From contig JAMXFF010000024.1 in the NCBI GenBank assembly GCA_025370845.1, forward strand, positions 54,497-116,372: DNA of 61,876 bases. The letters are read 5' to 3'. The stretch is from Laspinema palackyanum D2a. GTDB lineage: Bacteria > Cyanobacteriota > Cyanobacteriia > Cyanobacteriales > Laspinemataceae. Shown piece after piece: positions 52,706 to 61,119 of the stretch (the first letter of the stretch is position 1; each line of letters opens with the position of its first letter). The notes below the pieces were generated by a model. The model was not told the DNA's origin and did no database searches. It saw nothing but the letters and a program-made list of their open reading frames with translations. A program made the position numbers and the translations under genes.

Positions 52706-53254
52706 GTGAATAGCATAAGTGACGTATTAACAAAATCGGTGGTGGTGTTTTCTAAAAACTACTTACCGATTAGCCGAGTCAACATTAAACGAGCAATTGT
52801 CCTGTTAATTGCAGGCAAGGCAGAACCGTTGGAGTTAAGCGATGGCAGCAATAGCTATGACTTTGGCTTAGAGACCCCTCAACGGTATGAGGTGCGATCG
52901 CCCTCTCAAGTGGTGATGGTTCCTCCCCATATCCGCCTCACCATTACAGGGACTGAACGGATTTGGAAGGTGCCTCCGGTCAACCGTCGCGAAGTCCTCA
53001 AACGGGACCACCATGCCTGTCAATACTGCGGCAGTGCGAAACATTTAACCCTGGATCATGTCTTGCCTAAATCCCGAGGCGGGAGTCATAGTTGGGATAA
53101 TGTCGTAACCGCCTGCATGAGTTGCAATTCTCGCAAGGGCGATCGCACTCCGATGGAAGCTGGAATGACACTCAAAAGCAAACTCAAGGCCCCCATCCAC
53201 CCGGCGATCTCGTTTGCAGAACAATTCTGGAGCGATTTGAAGGGCTACGAGTGA
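52706..53254 (+). CDS. HNH endonuclease
   Basis: 182 residues, GTG start supported by AAGGAG seven bases upstream. N-terminal half (1-95) is the conserved cyanobacterial extension (VVVFSKNYLPISRVNIKRAIVLLIAGKAEPLE). The C-terminal HNH nuclease has Cys105/Cys108 (CQYC), catalytic LDHVLP with His118, the WDNVV Asn, and Cys137/Cys140 (CMSC) completing a structural zinc site. This stand-alone form is widespread in cyanobacteria; targets unknown. Neither a restriction methylase nor an intron is nearby. Confidence 0.88.
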   Translation: MNSISDVLTKSVVVFSKNYLPISRVNIKRAIVLLIAGKAEPLELSDGSNSYDFGLETPQRYEVRSPSQVVMVPPHIRLTITGTERIWKVPPVNRREVLKRDHHACQYCGSAKHLTLDHVLPKSRGGSHSWDNVVTACMSCNSRKGDRTPMEAGMTLKSKLKAPIHPAISFAEQFWSDLKGYE

Positions 53255-55675: not shown

Positions 55676-55704
55676 TTGACAGATTTGTAGTATGTTTGTA
55701 GTAT
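55676..55704 (+). promoter_or_regulatory. Candidate promoter of the tRNA array
   Basis: TTGACA (55676-55681), 17-base spacer, TAGTAT (55699-55704), with A runs upstream. The motif GTAGTATGTTTGTAGTAT is a short direct repeat. About 200 bases separate it from the first tRNA. The same box pair precedes tRNA-Gln at 31018. Confidence 0.62.
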
Positions 55705-55907
55705 ATAAATATGAGGCGAGAGGGACAGGGCAAAACGCTCTACCCAAACGCCCACATCGAACCTTGAAAACTGAATAATCAAAGGGCCATTTAATGAAAA
55801 CGGAAACAATGGCGGACTCAATCGGTGGGAATCATTCCCTTGAATCATTCCCACCCTATCAACCGCCAAACTTTTCCAAATTCCATGTAATCCACTGCTG
55901 ATTTCAT

Positions 55908-55982
55908 GGGGGTGTAGCTCAGTTAGCGTAGAGCACTTGTCTGTCGAACAAGTCGTCGCGGGTTCGAGTCCCGTCACTCCCG
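55908..55982 (+). tRNA. tRNA-Asp(GTC)
   Basis: First gene of the array. Acceptor GGGGGTG/CACTCCC, anticodon loop CTGTCGA, T-loop TTCGAGT, discriminator G, no CCA. Confidence 0.93.
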
Positions 55983-56040
55983 TTCAGCATGGATTAAATT
56001 TGGAAAAAACCCGAAGAAAAAACTCGATTGTAATGGATAG

Positions 56041-56112
56041 GGCCTCATCGTCTAATGGTTAGGATATAGCTCTTTCAAGGCTGGGATACGGGTTCAATTC
56101 CCGTTGAGGCTA
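56041..56112 (+). tRNA. tRNA-Glu(TTC), copy 1
   Basis: Acceptor GGCCTCA/TGAGGCT (G1-T72), anticodon loop CTTTCAA on a weak stem with two G-T pairs, T-loop TTCAATT, discriminator A. No CCA. Differs clearly from the other Glu(TTC) gene. Confidence 0.88.
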
Positions 56113-56124
56113 CCCAATCGATAT

Positions 56125-56199
56125 CGCAGTGTAACTTAATGGTAAAGTACCCAGCTCATAACTGGGTTGATGCAGGTTCAAATCCTGCTGCTGCGACCA
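56125..56199 (+). tRNA. tRNA-Met(CAT), elongator-type
   Basis: Acceptor CGCAGTG/TGCTGCG, anticodon stem CCCAG/CTGGG, loop CTCATAA, T-loop TTCAAAT, encoded CCA. Pairing at 1-72 makes it elongator-type. A tRNA-Ile with modified C34 cannot be excluded. Confidence 0.9.
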
Positions 56200-56205
56200 A
56201 CAAAT

Positions 56206-56280
56206 GTGGGGATAGTGTAATGGCTAACATGACGGTCTCCAAAACCGTTGATCTGAGTTCAAATCTCAGTCCCCTCGCCA
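56206..56280 (+). tRNA. tRNA-Trp(CCA)
   Basis: Anticodon stem ACGGT/ACCGT, loop CTCCAAA, T-loop TTCAAAT, encoded CCA. Acceptor has a T2-T71 mismatch. Confidence 0.88.
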
Positions 56281-56284
56281 ACCT

Positions 56285-56361
56285 GGTGCCGTAGGCAAAT
56301 TGGTAAAGCCCCCGATCTTTCAAGTCGGCGTTTGCGGGTTCAAATCCCGTCGGCACTGCCA
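56285..56361 (+). tRNA. tRNA-Glu(TTC), copy 2
   Basis: Acceptor GGTGCCG/CGGCACT, anticodon stem CCGAT/GTCGG, loop CTTTCAA, T-loop TTCAAAT, discriminator G, encoded CCA. Second Glu(TTC) in the array, with a quite different body. Confidence 0.88.
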
Positions 56362-56369
56362 CATTGTAT

Positions 56370-56456
56370 GGGCTGGTATCCAAATTGGTGAAGGAGCTTG
56401 ACTGTAAATCAAGTGCTATTGTGCTAAACATGGGGGTTCGAGTCCCTCCCGGCCCA
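56370..56456 (+). tRNA. tRNA-Tyr(GTA)
   Basis: Class II. Acceptor GGGCTGG/CCGGCCC, anticodon stem CTTGA/TCAAG, loop CTGTAAA, long variable arm, discriminator A, no CCA. Confidence 0.94.
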
Positions 56457-56460
56457 TTCT

Positions 56461-56547
56461 GGAGAGGTGGCCGAGTGGCTTAAGGCGCTTTCCTGCTAAG
56501 AAAGAGCGGTTTAACGACCGTCGAGGGTTCGACTCCCTCCCTCTCCG
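56461..56547 (+). tRNA. tRNA-Ser(GCT)
   Basis: Class II. Acceptor GGAGAGG/CCTCTCC, anticodon stem CTTTC/GAAAG, loop CTGCTAA, long variable arm, T-loop TTCGACT, discriminator G. Confidence 0.95.
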
Positions 56548-56584
56548 CCTTTTTTGTATAACTTGGGTGCATGACACCCAACCT

Positions 56585-56674
56585 GGAGAGATGGCCGAGA
56601 GGCTGATGGCGCGGTCTTGGAAAGACCGATCGGATTGAACAAATCCGACGAGGGTTCAAATCCCTCTCTCTCCT
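56585..56674 (+). tRNA. tRNA-Ser(GGA)
   Basis: Class II. Acceptor GGAGAGA/TCTCTCC, anticodon stem CGGTC/GACCG, loop TTGGAAA, long variable arm, discriminator T (unusual for Ser, normally G). Confidence 0.92.
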
Positions 56675-56678
56675 TTAT

Positions 56679-56752
56679 CCCCCGGTAGCTCAGTTGGTAG
56701 TAGCGCCTGTTTGAAGAACAGGAGGTCGTCGGATCGAAACCGACCTGGGGGA
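56679..56752 (+). tRNA. tRNA-Phe(GAA)
   Basis: Acceptor CCCCCGG/CTGGGGG, anticodon stem CCTGT/ACAGG, loop TTGAAGA, T-loop ATCGAAA (first T replaced by A), discriminator A. Confidence 0.9.
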
Positions 56753-56759
56753 CTGGTAT

Positions 56760-56835
56760 TGCCTGGTGGACGATTGGCAAGTCGCTGTGACTCTGAATCA
56801 CAGAGAGGTTGGTTCGACCCCAACCCAGGCATCCA
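56760..56835 (+). tRNA. tRNA-Gln(CTG)
   Basis: Acceptor TGCCTGG/CCAGGCA, anticodon stem TGTGA/TCACA, loop CTCTGAA, T-loop TTCGACC, discriminator T, encoded CCA. Confidence 0.9.
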
Positions 56836-56843
56836 TATCACAA

Positions 56844-56919
56844 TGCCCTGTGGTGTAATTGGCAACACCTCCGGATTTGGACCGGAAGAGTCCAGGTTCG
56901 ATCCCTGGCGGGGCATCCA
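56844..56919 (+). tRNA. tRNA-Gln(TTG), array copy
   Basis: Acceptor TGCCCTG/CGGGGCA, anticodon stem TCCGG/CCGGA, loop ATTTGGA, T-loop TTCGATC, discriminator T, encoded CCA. Its body differs from the stand-alone tRNA-Gln(TTG) at 31018, which has discriminator G and lacks CCA. Confidence 0.92.
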
Positions 56920-56925
56920 ATTTTT

Positions 56926-56999
56926 GCTCCTGTGGCGTAATTGGAAAACGCGATCGCCTCAAAAGCGATTTATTGTGAGTTCGAGTCTCACCGGGAGTA
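56926..56999 (+). tRNA. tRNA with Leu anticodon CAA in a class I body
   Basis: Acceptor GCTCCTG/CGGGAGT, T8, D-stem GCG/CGC with A14 and GG in the loop, anticodon stem ATCGC/GCGAT, loop CTCAAAA, variable loop only five bases, T-stem GTGAG/CTCAC, T-loop TTCGAGT, discriminator A. All normal bacterial tRNA-Leu are class II; this has no long arm. HIP1 (GCGATCGC) forms part of the anticodon arm. Confidence 0.82.
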
Positions 57000-57012
57000 C
57001 CTTGGTTCTCTC

Positions 57013-57097
57013 GCTCCTGTGGCGGAATGGGTAGACGCGGCAGACTTAAAATCTGTTTTTTTAAAAAGTGTGGGTTCGAGTCCCACCAGGAGTACCA
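57013..57097 (+). tRNA. tRNA-Leu(TAA)
   Basis: Class II. Acceptor GCTCCTG/CAGGAGT, loop CTTAAAA, long T/A-rich variable arm, T-loop TTCGAGT, discriminator A, encoded CCA. The only canonical Leu gene of the array. Confidence 0.92.
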
Positions 57098-57098
57098 A

Positions 57099-57172
57099 CG
57101 GGATGTAATTCAGCGGTTTAGAAGCCTTGGTTTGGGGCCAAGGAGTCGTGGGTTCAAATCCTACCATCCCGA
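57099..57172 (+). tRNA. tRNA-Pro(TGG)
   Basis: Acceptor CGGGATG/CATCCCG, anticodon stem CTTGG/CCAAG, loop TTTGGGG, T-loop TTCAAAT, discriminator A. A six-T run follows directly. Confidence 0.92.
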
Positions 57173-57180
57173 TTTTTTCT

Positions 57181-57254
57181 GCCCCTGTGACGTAATTGGA
57201 AACCGTCGCTCGCTCAGACCGAGTGTTTTACAGGTTCGAGTCCTGTCAGGGGTA
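57181..57254 (+). tRNA. tRNA with Leu anticodon CAG in a class I body
   Basis: Acceptor GCCCCTG/CAGGGGT, D-stem ACG/CGT, anticodon stem GCTCG/CGAGT, loop CTCAGAC, five-base variable loop, T-loop TTCGAGT, discriminator A. Every stem pairs, but the leucine long arm is missing. Confidence 0.82.
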
Positions 57255-57284
57255 TTGGGTTTAATGAATTAGCCCAATTACGGT

Positions 57285-57352
57285 GAAGGTTTGTAGTGAC
57301 TCCTTTAGGAGTCATTAAACAGAAACCCCTAAAGGGGTTACTACAAACCTTC
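57285..57352. repeat. GTTTGTAGT-family fold-back element inside the tRNA array
   Basis: GAAGGTTTGTAGT and ACTACAAACCTTC are perfect inverted ends. The interior holds CTCCTTTAGGAG and CCCCTAAAGGGG hairpins. A partial copy continues to about 57386. It splits the array between the CAG and AAG tRNAs. Confidence 0.85.
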
Positions 57353-57401
57353 AAAAACCATTCATAGTGACTCCGTGATAGAGTCATAATCCCAAAAATT
57401 T

Positions 57402-57475
57402 GCCCCTGTAGCCCAATTGGAAGAGGCACTAGATTAAGGATCTAGTGGATACTGGTTCGAGTCCAGTCAGGGGTA
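57402..57475 (+). tRNA. tRNA with Leu anticodon AAG in a class I body
   Basis: Acceptor GCCCCTG/CAGGGGT (same as the CAG gene), D-stem GCC/GGC, anticodon stem CTAGA/TCTAG, loop TTAAGGA, five-base variable loop, T-loop TTCGAGT, discriminator A. A34 outside Arg(ACG) is rare in bacteria. Confidence 0.82.
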
Positions 57476-57488
57476 TTTTGGTGATTTA

Positions 57489-57566
57489 TGCAGGGATGGA
57501 GCAATGGTTGGCTCGTCAGTCTCATAAACTGAACATCAGCAAGTTCAAATCTTGCCCCTGCCACCA
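57489..57566 (+). tRNA. Initiator-like tRNA-Met(CAT)
   Basis: Only six acceptor pairs (GCAGGG/CCCTGC), T1 faces C72 unpaired, D-stem GAGC and GGCTCGTC follow the initiator pattern, loop CTCATAA, encoded ACCA. The anticodon stem TCAGT/ACTGA lacks the three G-C pairs of true initiators, and one extra A lies between acceptor and D-stem. Confidence 0.82.
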
Positions 57567-57575
57567 ATTCTTAAT

Positions 57576-57649
57576 GCTGGTGTGGCTCAAATTGGCAGAG
57601 CGATCGCCTTGTAAGCGATGGGTTGCAGGTTCAATTCCTGTCACCAGCT
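57576..57649 (+). tRNA. tRNA-Thr(TGT)
   Basis: Acceptor GCTGGTG/CACCAGC, anticodon stem ATCGC/GCGAT, loop CTTGTAA, T-loop TTCAATT, discriminator T. A HIP1-like GCGATCGCC overlaps the anticodon stem. Confidence 0.93.
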
Positions 57650-57653
57650 TTCT

Positions 57654-57725
57654 GCGGGTGTGATGTAGTGGTAAGCATCTGAGTCTGCCAGTCTCAGTGC
57701 ATGGGTTCAAATCCCATCATCCGCT
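57654..57725 (+). tRNA. tRNA-Gly(GCC)
   Basis: Acceptor GCGGGTG/CATCCGC, anticodon loop CTGCCAG, T-loop TTCAAAT, discriminator T. The inner anticodon-stem pair is a T-T mismatch. Confidence 0.85.
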
Positions 57726-57730
57726 TTTGT

Positions 57731-57805
57731 AGTCCTATAGCTCAACGGTAGAGCGCTTGCCTTACAAGCAAGATGTTGTCAGTTCAAATCTGACTGGGAC
57801 TACCA
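57731..57805 (+). tRNA. tRNA-Val(TAC)
   Basis: Acceptor AGTCCTA/TGGGACT, anticodon stem CTTGC/GCAAG, loop CTTACAA, T-loop TTCAAAT, encoded CCA. Confidence 0.94.
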
Positions 57806-57811
57806 ATAAAA

Positions 57812-57885
57812 GAGAGTGTAACTTAATTGGAAAAAGTCCCGATCTTCTAAATCGGTTTATGTAGGTTCAAGTCCTACCACTCTTG
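57812..57885 (+). tRNA. tRNA-Arg(TCT)
   Basis: Acceptor GAGAGTG/CACTCTT, anticodon stem CCGAT/ATCGG, loop CTTCTAA, T-loop TTCAAGT, discriminator G. A T-rich stretch follows. Confidence 0.9.
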
Positions 57886-58204
57886 TTGTTTTTTACTTAA
57901 AAAAGGAGGATTATCTTCTGAAATTCAAACGGTTTAATTTTCTGCGATCGCGTCCAAGCGTGACCTAATTTTTGGAGCTTACATACTTGAGTACGAGAGG
58001 AAAAGTGCCACAAAATAACTGTGGGCGCGTGAGAACGAGGAATACGAAGAACCCGAGAGGTGGGCTTAAAAGTAGCCATCCTTTAAAGAGTGTGTAACAA
58101 CCCATCGGTGGAGTCCCTCTAGTAACTGAGAAAGCGCAAAACGCTCCTCGCACTTGCACGACCAAACGCGATCGTCTCACATAAGTTCATTGTCTACTGA
58201 ATCT
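57886..58204 (+). other. Gap in the tRNA array with tRNA-unit remnants
   Basis: 320 bases without a tRNA I can fold. GAGCTTACATACTTGAGTAC near 57976 matches the repeated CTTACATACT start of the tandem units at 60.6-61.1 kb. Hairpins GCCACA...TGTGGGC and AGCG-CAAAA-CGCT are present. Probably decayed tRNA units. Confidence 0.55.
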
Positions 58205-58277
58205 GGGTCTGTAGTTCCAATGGGAGAACGCTTCTCTTGCAAAGAAGAGGTTGCGGGTTCGACCCCCGCCAGATCCA
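58205..58277 (+). tRNA. tRNA-Ala(TGC)
   Basis: Acceptor GGGTCTG/CAGATCC, anticodon stem CTTCT/AGAAG, loop CTTGCAA, T-loop TTCGACC, discriminator A. The G3-T70 pair, the alanine identity element, is present. Confidence 0.95.
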
Positions 58278-58282
58278 CTGAT

Positions 58283-58357
58283 GGTGTCTGAAGTCCAAGC
58301 GGTCCAGACGCTGGTTTGTGAAGCCAGTCCTAGCGGGTTCAAGTCCCGTCAGACACC
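58283..58357 (+). tRNA. tRNA-His(GTG)
   Basis: Acceptor GTGTCTG/CAGACAC with the histidine-specific extra G at -1 (58283) facing C73, loop TTGTGAA, T-loop TTCAAGT. Confidence 0.94.
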
Positions 58358-58361
58358 CTGC

Positions 58362-58447
58362 GGAAGATGCTGCTGAATGGACGGCAACTGGTCTCGAAAG
58401 CCAGAGTGCGGGTAACTGTAGGGGTTCGATTCCTCCATCTTCCACCA
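58362..58447 (+). tRNA. tRNA-Ser(CGA)
   Basis: Class II. Acceptor GGAAGAT/ATCTTCC, anticodon stem CTGGT/GCCAG, loop CTCGAAA, long variable arm, T-loop TTCGATT, discriminator A, encoded CCA. Confidence 0.9.
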
Positions 58448-58448
58448 C

Positions 58449-58520
58449 CCACCAGAAGCCGAAAAGTGAGGCACCGTGCTGATAACGCGGCGTCAGGAGG
58501 GGCAGTACCTCTCTGGTGGA
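58449..58520 (+). tRNA. tRNA-Ile(GAT) with aberrant loops
   Basis: Acceptor CCACCAG/CTGGTGG, D-stem GCC/GGC, anticodon stem CCGTG/CGCGG, loop CTGATAA and T-stem GGAGG/CCTCT are all paired. But position 8 is A, the D-loop lacks GG, and the T-loop is GGCAGTA instead of TTCRANT. It may be missed or scored low by covariance models. Confidence 0.65.
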
Positions 58521-58523
58521 TTT

Positions 58524-58593
58524 CCCTTTGCCAGCGGATCTGGAACTGATGCTACGAACGTCGGTGTCGGTGGTTCAACTCCATCCAAAGGGG
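58524..58593 (+). tRNA. tRNA-Arg(ACG)-like, aberrant D-arm
   Basis: Acceptor CCCTTTG/CAAAGGG, anticodon stem TGATG/CGTCG, loop CTACGAA, T-stem GGTGG/CCATC, T-loop TTCAACT. The D-arm is replaced by a tight CCAG-CGGAT-CTGG hairpin joined directly to the acceptor, without T8 and without GG. Confidence 0.62.
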
Positions 58594-58645
58594 CTTTCTC
58601 TTGCCTGTGAGAGGCTTCCTGCATCACTTTAAGGTAAGGGACTAT

Positions 58646-58717
58646 TCCTCGGTAGCTCAATGGTGGAGCATCCGGCTGTTAACCGGAGGGTTCTTGGTTC
58701 GAGTCCAAGTCGAGGAG
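58646..58717 (+). tRNA. tRNA-Asn(GTT)
   Basis: Acceptor TCCTCGG/TCGAGGA, anticodon stem TCCGG/CCGGA, loop CTGTTAA, T-loop TTCGAGT, discriminator G. Confidence 0.95.
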
Positions 58718-58779
58718 TTTCGGAGTTCCATTTAAGTGAGAGGTAACGTTAGGATGAAATAGTTTAAGTCGTGATTGAT

Positions 58780-58865
58780 GGAAGCTGCTGCTGATGGGAC
58801 GGCAACCAGTCTTGAACACTGGGGTACGGTGGAAATCCGTAGGGGTTCGACTCCTCCAGCTTCCG
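58780..58865 (+). tRNA. tRNA-Ser(TGA)
   Basis: Class II. Acceptor GGAAGCT/AGCTTCC, anticodon stem CCAGT/ACTGG, loop CTTGAAC, long variable arm, T-loop TTCGACT, discriminator G. Body clearly related to the Ser(CGA) gene. Confidence 0.94.
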
Positions 58866-58882
58866 ATGATATGAGATACAAT

Positions 58883-58955
58883 GGGTGGTTGGCAGATCGG
58901 TTTATGCATTCGACTTTTAATCGAATCGAGAGAGGTTCAACTCCTCTACCACCCT
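58883..58955 (+). tRNA. tRNA-Lys(TTT)
   Basis: Last gene of the main array. Acceptor GGGTGGT/ACCACCC, anticodon stem TTCGA/TCGAA, loop CTTTTAA, T-loop TTCAACT, discriminator T. Confidence 0.92.
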
Positions 58956-60596: not shown

Positions 60597-61119
60597 GCAC
60601 TTCGCGCCCTGACTTAAAAAGCTTACATACTTGCTCAATGGTTGGGCACTACTTTATGGAAGTAACTCTAGCAGGTTCGAGTCCTGCGTATGTTCCAACG
60701 GCTTTTTTAACTTGCGCGAAGTGTTTTAATTTTCTACCTTTAAAAACCGTCTTAATATCCAGGCACTTCGTACCCTAACTCAGAAAGCTTACATACTTTG
60801 GTACAGCTTTACTCTCATAAAGTACAAGCAGCAGGTTCAATCCCTGCGTATGACTCAACGGCTTTCTGGACTTGTACGAGGTGTTTAAATTTTTCCGCGT
60901 TTCCCTATTCTGATTACCCCGGCACTTCGCGCCCTAACTTAAAAAGCCTACATACTTGCTCACTCGTTGGGCATTACTTGGAATGGAACCTTCGCCGGTT
61001 CTATTCTAGCTTATGAAACAACGGCTTTCTTTACTTGCGCGAAGTGTTTTATTTTTTCTATTTCAAAACGGTTTTAATATCCAGGCACTTCGTGCCCTAA
61101 CTCAGAAAGCTTACATACT
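60597..61119 (+). repeat. Tandem array of about 161-bp tRNA-like units
   Basis: Units begin near 60598, 60762, 60923 and 61085 with CACTTCGYRCCCT...AAAAGCTTACATACT. Each holds a tRNA-like body: unit 1 still has D-stem GCTC/GGGC, anticodon loop TTATGGA, T-arm GCAGG-TTCGAGT-CCTGC and a CCA. Unit 2 has a CTCATAA loop and T-arm but no D-arm. Unit 3 has lost most pairing. Between bodies, GCGCGAAGTG and CACTTCGCGC are complementary. The fourth unit is cut after CATACT. Confidence 0.82.

What the first reader, a model, noticed from the sequence alone, without database searches (positions are those of the whole stretch)
56926..57475. Three tRNAs with leucine anticodons (CAA, CAG, AAG) in class I bodies
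Seen: fully paired cloverleaves with five-base variable loops, discriminator A73, A14 and G18G19 present, but no long arm. Known: bacterial tRNA-Leu is class II. Their acceptors match the canonical Leu(TAA) neighbour or each other. They could be Leu tRNAs that lost the arm, anticodon-shifted tRNAs of another identity (mistranslators), or inert. The AAG gene also has an unusual A34.
Basis: partly seen in the sequence, partly recalled or inferred. Interest (0 to 1): 0.85.

Follow-up and report, generated by a model that had tools for sequence, protein, structure and literature searches.

The report
Short-armed leucine tRNAs in stress array
Three leucine transfer RNAs in a cyanobacterial tRNA gene array really do lack the long side arm expected of bacterial leucine tRNAs, but they keep the marks the leucine enzyme reads and belong to a widespread, conserved family, so they are most likely ordinary leucine carriers in a streamlined shape.

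Summary
In detail: the CAA, CAG and AAG tRNAs (56926-56999, 57181-57254, 57402-57475) have 5-nt variable loops, A73, A14 and G18G19. They are not singletons. In the window and 32 homologous stretches, 91 of 96 usable Leu tRNAs are class I. The published E. coli leucine identity set (A73, A14, A15-U48, G18G19, A20a) is complete in 88 of those 91 and in 0 of 455 class I tRNAs of other isotypes there. They evolve about four times slower than spacers, their stems covary, and arm lengths of 13, 12, 10, 6 and 5 nt in Leu-TAA trace the loss. Ser tRNAs keep the arm, as expected if LeuRS does not need it. Outside arrays, class I Leu tRNAs are lone genes in many Actinobacteria; in one genome whose tRNA matches were all read they are the only UUA/UUG readers found. 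So 'bacterial tRNA-Leu is class II' is too strong. Best reading: genuine Leu isoacceptors of a TrcR-type stress array, charged by the one host LeuRS. A short-loop Leu tRNA in a mycobacterial cluster is in print (PMC6582537). Charging and expression are not shown.

The parts
56926..56999 (+). tRNA-Leu(CAA), class I, variable loop TTATT, A73
   Evidence: 63.6 bits; numbered; identical in 3 of the 4 other same-genus loci where it was found
57013..57097 (+). tRNA-Leu(TAA), variable region of 13 nt, the only long-armed Leu of this array
   Evidence: Leu-TAA of relatives show 13, 12, 10, 6 and 5 nt
57181..57254 (+). tRNA-Leu(CAG), class I, variable loop GTTTT, A73
   Evidence: 48.6 bits; the gene at the same place reads TAG in L382
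57260..57400 (+). dispersed repeat between the CAG and AAG genes; mostly absent at this place in 4 of 5 relatives aligned
   Evidence: more than 40 matching places elsewhere in the own genome; 106 of 141 bases not aligned in L382, L383, L385, L386
57402..57475 (+). tRNA-Leu(AAG), class I, variable loop TGGAT, A73; body closest to array Leu-TAG
   Evidence: 59.2 bits; 92.7% body identity to Leu-TAG of L014; AAG in 8 of 8 genus loci including the window
55907..58955 (+). array of 27 tRNA genes that holds the three genes
   Evidence: similar arrays on Nostoc, Tolypothrix, Calothrix and Kovacikia plasmids
55676..55704 (+). putative promoter: TTGACA, 17 bases, TAGTAT, with two TGTAGTAT (TrcR-type) sites, the second overlapping the -10 box
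   Evidence: sequence; sites 221 and 210 bases before the first tRNA, a third 344 before; tandem site found once in the genome

Best explanation
The three genes are real leucine isoacceptors of a cyanobacterial tRNA array of the trn-operon (L-array) kind. They lost the long variable arm because bacterial LeuRS reads A73 and the D-loop/T-loop core (A14, A15-U48, G18G19, A20a) rather than the arm. The arm is therefore free to shrink in Leu tRNAs, while Ser tRNAs in the same arrays keep theirs. Transcribed from a TrcR-type stress promoter (inferred from the Anabaena operon), processed and given CCA by the host (none of the three encodes it), they are charged with leucine by the one host LeuRS. 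With Leu-TAA they cover all six leucine codons if A34 of the AAG gene is edited to inosine. Shown here: structure, identity set, constraint, intermediate arm lengths, single LeuRS, operator-like sites. Inferred: transcription, charging, inosine, benefit under stress.
For: Identity set in 88 of 91 class I Leu and 0 of 455 other class I tRNAs of the same stretches; in a second sample fetched by a non-Leu query, 29 of 30 class I Leu, three of them the window's own. Nearest body with a different anticodon is Leu in 91 of 91. Arm retained in 41 of 41 Ser and 13 of 14 Tyr, lost in 91 of 96 Leu, matching the reported arm-independence of E. coli LeuRS (PMC9976931 section 12) and the statement that SerRS recognises only class II tRNAs (PMC7609411, passages). 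Substitutions per aligned site: class I Leu 0.0226, other tRNAs 0.0233, spacers 0.0874. Stem cells 95.1% paired, 18 of 21 pairs with Watson-Crick to Watson-Crick double changes; slid controls 48.7% and 34.5%, 7 and 6 of 17. One LeuRS over the family cut-off in the genome; five class II housekeeping Leu genes, one with a group I intron read by eye. Rhodococcus tibetensis has class I Leu-TAA and Leu-CAA as its only genes found for UUA/UUG. Exact TrcR-type sites in 13 of 25 stretches with enough upstream sequence.
Against: No expression, processing or charging data here. The identity set comes from E. coli LeuRS; the host LeuRS was not tested. Sequences are related, so counts are not independent events. 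L013-L040 were fetched by a query containing the Leu genes, which favours arrays with similar Leu genes. 12 of 25 stretches show no exact TrcR-type site in the part examined. The single-strand fold does not recover the full cloverleaf for CAG and AAG. L386 Leu-CAA has lost the G18G19 pair, so decay does happen.
Confidence: 0.88

Rival explanations
1. Anticodon-shifted tRNAs of another amino-acid identity that misread leucine codons under stress (mistranslators).
For: Class I shape would admit synthetases of class I tRNAs; A35 is shared with Val, Ile and Met anticodons (recalled); the Anabaena array is a stress system (PMC10272220).
Against: No class I tRNA of another isotype in the same stretches has the full leucine set (0 of 455), and bodies are nearest to Leu in 91 of 91. 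Anticodon swaps in these bodies stay among Leu anticodons.
Confidence: 0.04
2. Inert or decaying passengers of a mobile array, transcribed rarely and not charged.
For: The array is supernumerary: all five Leu isoacceptors also exist as class II housekeeping genes. One relative has a damaged Leu-CAA (L386). The Anabaena array is silent in normal culture.
Against: About four-fold lower substitution rate than spacers, covariation of stems, promoter with operator-like sites, AAG kept in 8 of 8 genus loci including the window.
Confidence: 0.07
3. Leu tRNAs used mainly for something other than elongation, such as a decoy for toxins or nucleases.
For: The array carries other odd RNAs: an rRNA-like element and tRNA-Sec-like Ser tRNAs.
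Against: Conserved leucine set, leucine anticodons and cloverleaf are what elongation needs; nothing here points to a decoy role for these three.
Confidence: 0.03

Closest known systems
Anabaena sp. PCC 7120 trn operon (delta plasmid, 26 tRNA genes; TrcR-repressed; PMC10272220, passages read)
   Same: Long tRNA operon in a cyanobacterium with a TGTAGTAT site overlapping a TAGTAT -10 box; similar arrays on Nostoc and Kovacikia plasmids also carry class I Leu genes.
   Different: This one lies on a 116-kb contig (in a same-genus genome the neighbouring element lies at 2.64 Mb of its contig, so probably chromosomal), has 27 genes and keeps one long-armed Leu-TAA. The 2021 array paper (gkab661) was not held.
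Cluster tRNA-Leu(TAG) with a short variable loop in Mycobacterium mucogenicum/phocaicum (PMC6582537, passages read)
   Same: A short-variable-loop Leu tRNA in a tRNA cluster beside a normal long-loop isoacceptor elsewhere in the genome.
   Different: In the passages seen, one isoacceptor and no identity analysis; here six leucine anticodons across many arrays.
Class I tRNA-Leu(TAA/CAA) lone genes of Actinobacteria (found here)
   Same: Commonest D arm (TAGCCCAAYYGGNAGAGGC) as in the AAG gene, A15-U48, A73, 5-nt variable loop.
   Different: Lone genes rather than array members; acceptor stems differ; the window's CAA and CAG genes have another D arm.
Human mitochondrial tRNA-Leu(UUR) (PMC9976931, passages)
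   Same: Leucylated without a long arm, identity from A73 and A14.
   Different: Organellar, different LeuRS.

Membership tests
Leucine-accepting bacterial tRNA (LeuRS substrate) | A73, A14, A15-U48, G18G19, A20a (E. coli set) | tested here: met
   All three window genes; 88 of 91 array class I Leu against 0 of 455 others
Leucine-accepting bacterial tRNA (LeuRS substrate) | Leucine anticodon | tested here: met
   CAA, CAG, AAG
Leucine-accepting bacterial tRNA (LeuRS substrate) | Charged with leucine in vivo or in vitro | not testable with these tools
   Needs biochemistry
Canonical class II bacterial tRNA-Leu | Long variable loop of 10 or more nt (definition seen in PMC7609411 passages) | tested here: not met
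   5 nt in all three; so they are filed as class I tRNA-Leu, not as canonical class II
Cyanobacterial trn operon / L-array | Dense collinear supernumerary tRNA array similar to known ones | tested here: met
   27 genes, similarity to Nostoc-type plasmid arrays, housekeeping Leu set elsewhere
Cyanobacterial trn operon / L-array | TrcR-type TGTAGTAT site at the promoter | tested here: met
   Three exact sites upstream, two beside a TTGACA box; TrcR binding itself not tested, and no TrcR gene was looked for
Cyanobacterial trn operon / L-array | Silent in normal growth, induced by translation inhibitors | not testable with these tools
   Reported for Anabaena in PMC10272220, not here
Anticodon-shifted mistranslating tRNA | Body belongs to another isotype | tested here: not met
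   Nearest different-anticodon body is Leu in 91 of 91

The most novel reading that the evidence does not exclude
Arm loss is adaptive: the array holds a leucine set in a shape that damage agents or regulators aimed at class II housekeeping Leu tRNAs cannot act on. When housekeeping tRNAs are cut or blocked, TrcR releases the array together with the RNA ligase RtcB (co-regulated in Anabaena) and the class I set, with Leu-TAA, keeps all six leucine codons readable.
Probability: 0.12. Interest if true: 0.72.

Novelty: new member of a known kind. Interest (0 to 1): 0.45.

Why it matters
It corrects a textbook rule: leucine tRNAs of bacteria can be class I, both in mobile arrays and, in many Actinobacteria, as lone genes. 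The arrays give a natural experiment on synthetase recognition: the arm is lost from leucine tRNAs and kept in serine tRNAs. It also warns that tRNA annotation by class alone can make real leucine tRNAs look odd.

Tried and rejected
Rejected: that the three are rare freaks; that their bodies come from another isotype; that a second LeuRS serves them (one hit over the cut-off; the other hits, three genes in pieces, fall far below it); that the AAG gene is a random sport (AAG in 8 of 8 genus loci; also in L032, L095, L388 and three viral stretches).

Led nowhere or limited: the search of 386 cyanobacterial genomes with the 550-base query gives weak hits to ordinary Leu genes in most distant genomes, so 342 of 386 is not a count of arrays. 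Rows dropped: of 640 parsed tRNAs 35 failed quality limits, 4 of them Leu (L025 CAA, L027 TAA, L028 CAA, L033 GAG), and 7 more were unparsed. L011 and L037 look like the same plasmid (both 41078 bases), so one array is counted twice; a few stretches (L036, L039) hold only 3 and 5 tRNAs. Three class I Leu rows lack the full set (L021 TAA, L028 TAG, L035 GAG). The substitution count used 5 of the 7 other same-genus loci. Literature: 10 searches. No listing showed a paper that states class I tRNA-Leu as general in Actinobacteria or in tRNA arrays, but for most papers only the title, abstract start and counts were seen, and the key 2021 array paper is not held.

Full report
What was checked. ARAGORN lists 27 collinear tRNA genes at 55907-58955. 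The three in question are Leu-CAA, Leu-CAG and Leu-AAG; Rfam's tRNA model gives 63.6, 48.6 and 59.2 bits. Position by position each has a 5-nt variable loop and A14, A15-U48, G18G19, A20a and A73.

Surroundings. The window lies on a 116-kb contig of a 7.4-Mb cyanobacterial assembly. Upstream of the array is TTGACA, 17 bases and TAGTAT, with two TGTAGTAT sites, the second overlapping the -10 box (sequence). TGTAGTAT overlapping a TAGTAT -10 box is the reported operator of TrcR, the repressor that silences the 26-gene trn operon of Anabaena PCC 7120 until translation is inhibited (PMC10272220, passages read). The tandem site occurs once in the genome with up to 3 mismatches allowed. Of 33 stretches examined (the window and L009-L040), 25 had at least 200 bases upstream of the first tRNA seen and 13 of those carry an exact site; in several of the others the first tRNA seen may not be the first of the operon. 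The rest of the genome has Leu-CAA, CAG, GAG and TAG genes, all with 12-15 nt variable regions, and a Leu-TAA gene with a group I intron whose exons, read by eye, give a long variable region. One LeuRS is over the family cut-off. No TrcR gene was looked for.

The family. In the 33 stretches, 96 of 100 parsed Leu tRNAs pass quality limits: 91 have variable loops of 5-7 nt, with anticodons TAG 26, TAA 23, CAA 20, GAG 11, CAG 9 and AAG 2; 5 have 12-13 nt, all TAA. Ser tRNAs keep long arms (41 of 41) and Tyr nearly always (13 of 14). A second set of 15 loci, fetched through a different element of the array and including the window, has 37 Leu tRNAs: 30 class I and 7 long, again all TAA. Without the window it is 27 class I of 33. 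Leu-TAA variable regions of 13, 12, 10, 6 and 5 nt are seen across the two sets. The L032 version differs from the window's at four positions outside that region and lacks its last 7 nt, so arm loss can be followed within one gene.

Identity test. The set tested is the one published for E. coli LeuRS (PMC9976931, section 12 read whole; A14 from a passage). It is complete in 88 of 91 array class I Leu tRNAs and in 0 of 455 class I tRNAs of other isotypes from the same stretches. In the second set it is complete in 29 of 30, three of these being the window's genes. The review also states that E. [quoted passage not shown] For each of the 91, the nearest body with another anticodon is again Leu. 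The same test on other isotypes often gives a foreign body (for example Gln 15 of 52 and Arg 14 of 47 find their own), though Gly finds its own in 23 of 29. Anticodon swaps in closely related bodies stay in the leucine box: TAG and AAG, and CAG in the window against TAG at the same place in L382.

Constraint. Among five same-genus loci aligned to the window (of seven held), substitutions per site are 0.0226 in class I Leu genes (24 of 1063), 0.0233 in other tRNAs (72 of 3092), 0.0336 in Leu-TAA (13 of 387) and 0.0874 in spacers (96 of 1098). Across 86 distinct class I Leu sequences 95.1% of stem cells pair, and 18 of 21 pairs show Watson-Crick to Watson-Crick double changes, far above the slid controls. 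Relatedness inflates such numbers, but inert DNA would hardly give them. Decay also occurs: Leu-CAA of L386 has lost the G18G19 pair.

Elsewhere. A pattern requiring the set, a 5-nt variable loop and a Leu-type anticodon was scanned in the genome collection. In Rhodococcus tibetensis all 49 tRNA-model matches were read (47 distinct genes by ARAGORN). Its single Leu-TAA and Leu-CAA are class I; CAG, GAG and TAG are class II. Unless a gene is missing from the assembly or was missed by the model, UUA and UUG in that organism depend on class I tRNAs, which is strong circumstantial evidence that a bacterial LeuRS charges them. The same pattern hits 120 viral stretches before its limit. The D arm shared with the AAG gene (TAGCCCAAYYGGNAGAGGC) suggests common descent or exchange, perhaps through phages. 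This was not resolved.

AAG. The gene's body is 92.7% identical to the array Leu-TAG of L014, so it probably arose by U34 to A34. It is AAG in all 8 genus loci, the window included. Streptococcus TadA edits tRNA-Leu(AAG) to IAG, which can read CUU, CUC and CUA, and that paper mentions AAG genes in Prochlorococcus (PMC13249217, passages read). Whether the host enzyme edits this tRNA is unknown.

Prior knowledge. A cluster tRNA-Leu(TAG) with a short variable loop is reported for Mycobacterium mucogenicum and phocaicum (PMC6582537, passages read). The Anabaena operon and its stress induction are known. What I did not see in print in the ten searches listed is the generality of class I Leu in arrays, its identity signature, or its use as the lone UUR readers in Actinobacteria; the main array paper could not be read. 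I therefore rate the finding a new member of a known kind with a moderately surprising general message.

Verdict. Genuine class I leucine isoacceptors, probably charged by LeuRS; mistranslation about 4%, inert about 7%. Charging and expression remain to be shown.

Noticed in passing
window 57955-58180 (between Arg-TCT and Ala-TGC): An element with the 23S rRNA sarcin-ricin loop motif AGTACGAGAGGA (57990; motif from recall) and a match to LSU rRNA positions 1169-1240 (58044-58114, RF02540, 52.5 bits; 47 bits when searched alone) that looks like the GTPase-associated centre: a possible mimic of the ribosome's factor-binding site inside a stress-type tRNA operon. Matches at E<=1e-6 in 78 of 291 genomes of the order (some are only weak hits of the rRNA-like part); 15 of 15 loci examined, the window included, lie in tRNA arrays and keep the exact loop; it evolves as slowly as the tRNAs (29 of 1053 sites). 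One literature search listed nothing on it by title or abstract start. It deserves its own study.
   Followed up: partly
window 58362-58447 and 58779-58866: Ser-CGA and Ser-TGA genes fit the tRNA-Sec model best (34.6 and 44.3 bits, gathering 47); they look like allo-tRNA-type serine tRNAs with an extended acceptor (that name and reading are from recall).
   Followed up: no
window 58449-58520: A further tRNA-model match of 34.7 bits (over the cut-off of 29) in the own-genome search that ARAGORN does not call and that the Rfam scan of the window did not list.
   Followed up: no
L010, L033, L389, L390, L392: Array tRNAs with a CTA (amber-suppressor) anticodon, labelled Pyl by ARAGORN; in L389, L390 and L392 they follow Val-TAC where other arrays have Arg-TCT.
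   Followed up: no
L015, L016, L019, L022, L024, L029: Array tRNAs with a two- or four-base anticodon call (cc, tcca) at the place where other arrays have Trp: altered anticodon loops shared by several arrays.
   Followed up: no
window 52706-53254: HNH endonuclease gene (Pfam HNH_5, HNH) about 2.6 kb upstream of the array; HNH genes also sit just upstream of the arrays in three Nostoc plasmids.
   Followed up: no
window 57260-57400: Dispersed repeat with more than 40 matching places elsewhere in the own genome sits between Leu-CAG and Leu-AAG; most of it is missing there in 4 of 5 relatives aligned.
   Followed up: partly
window 60624-60696: Lone weak His-like tRNA with an ATG anticodon (35 bits) between the acetyltransferase and transposase genes.
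   Followed up: no
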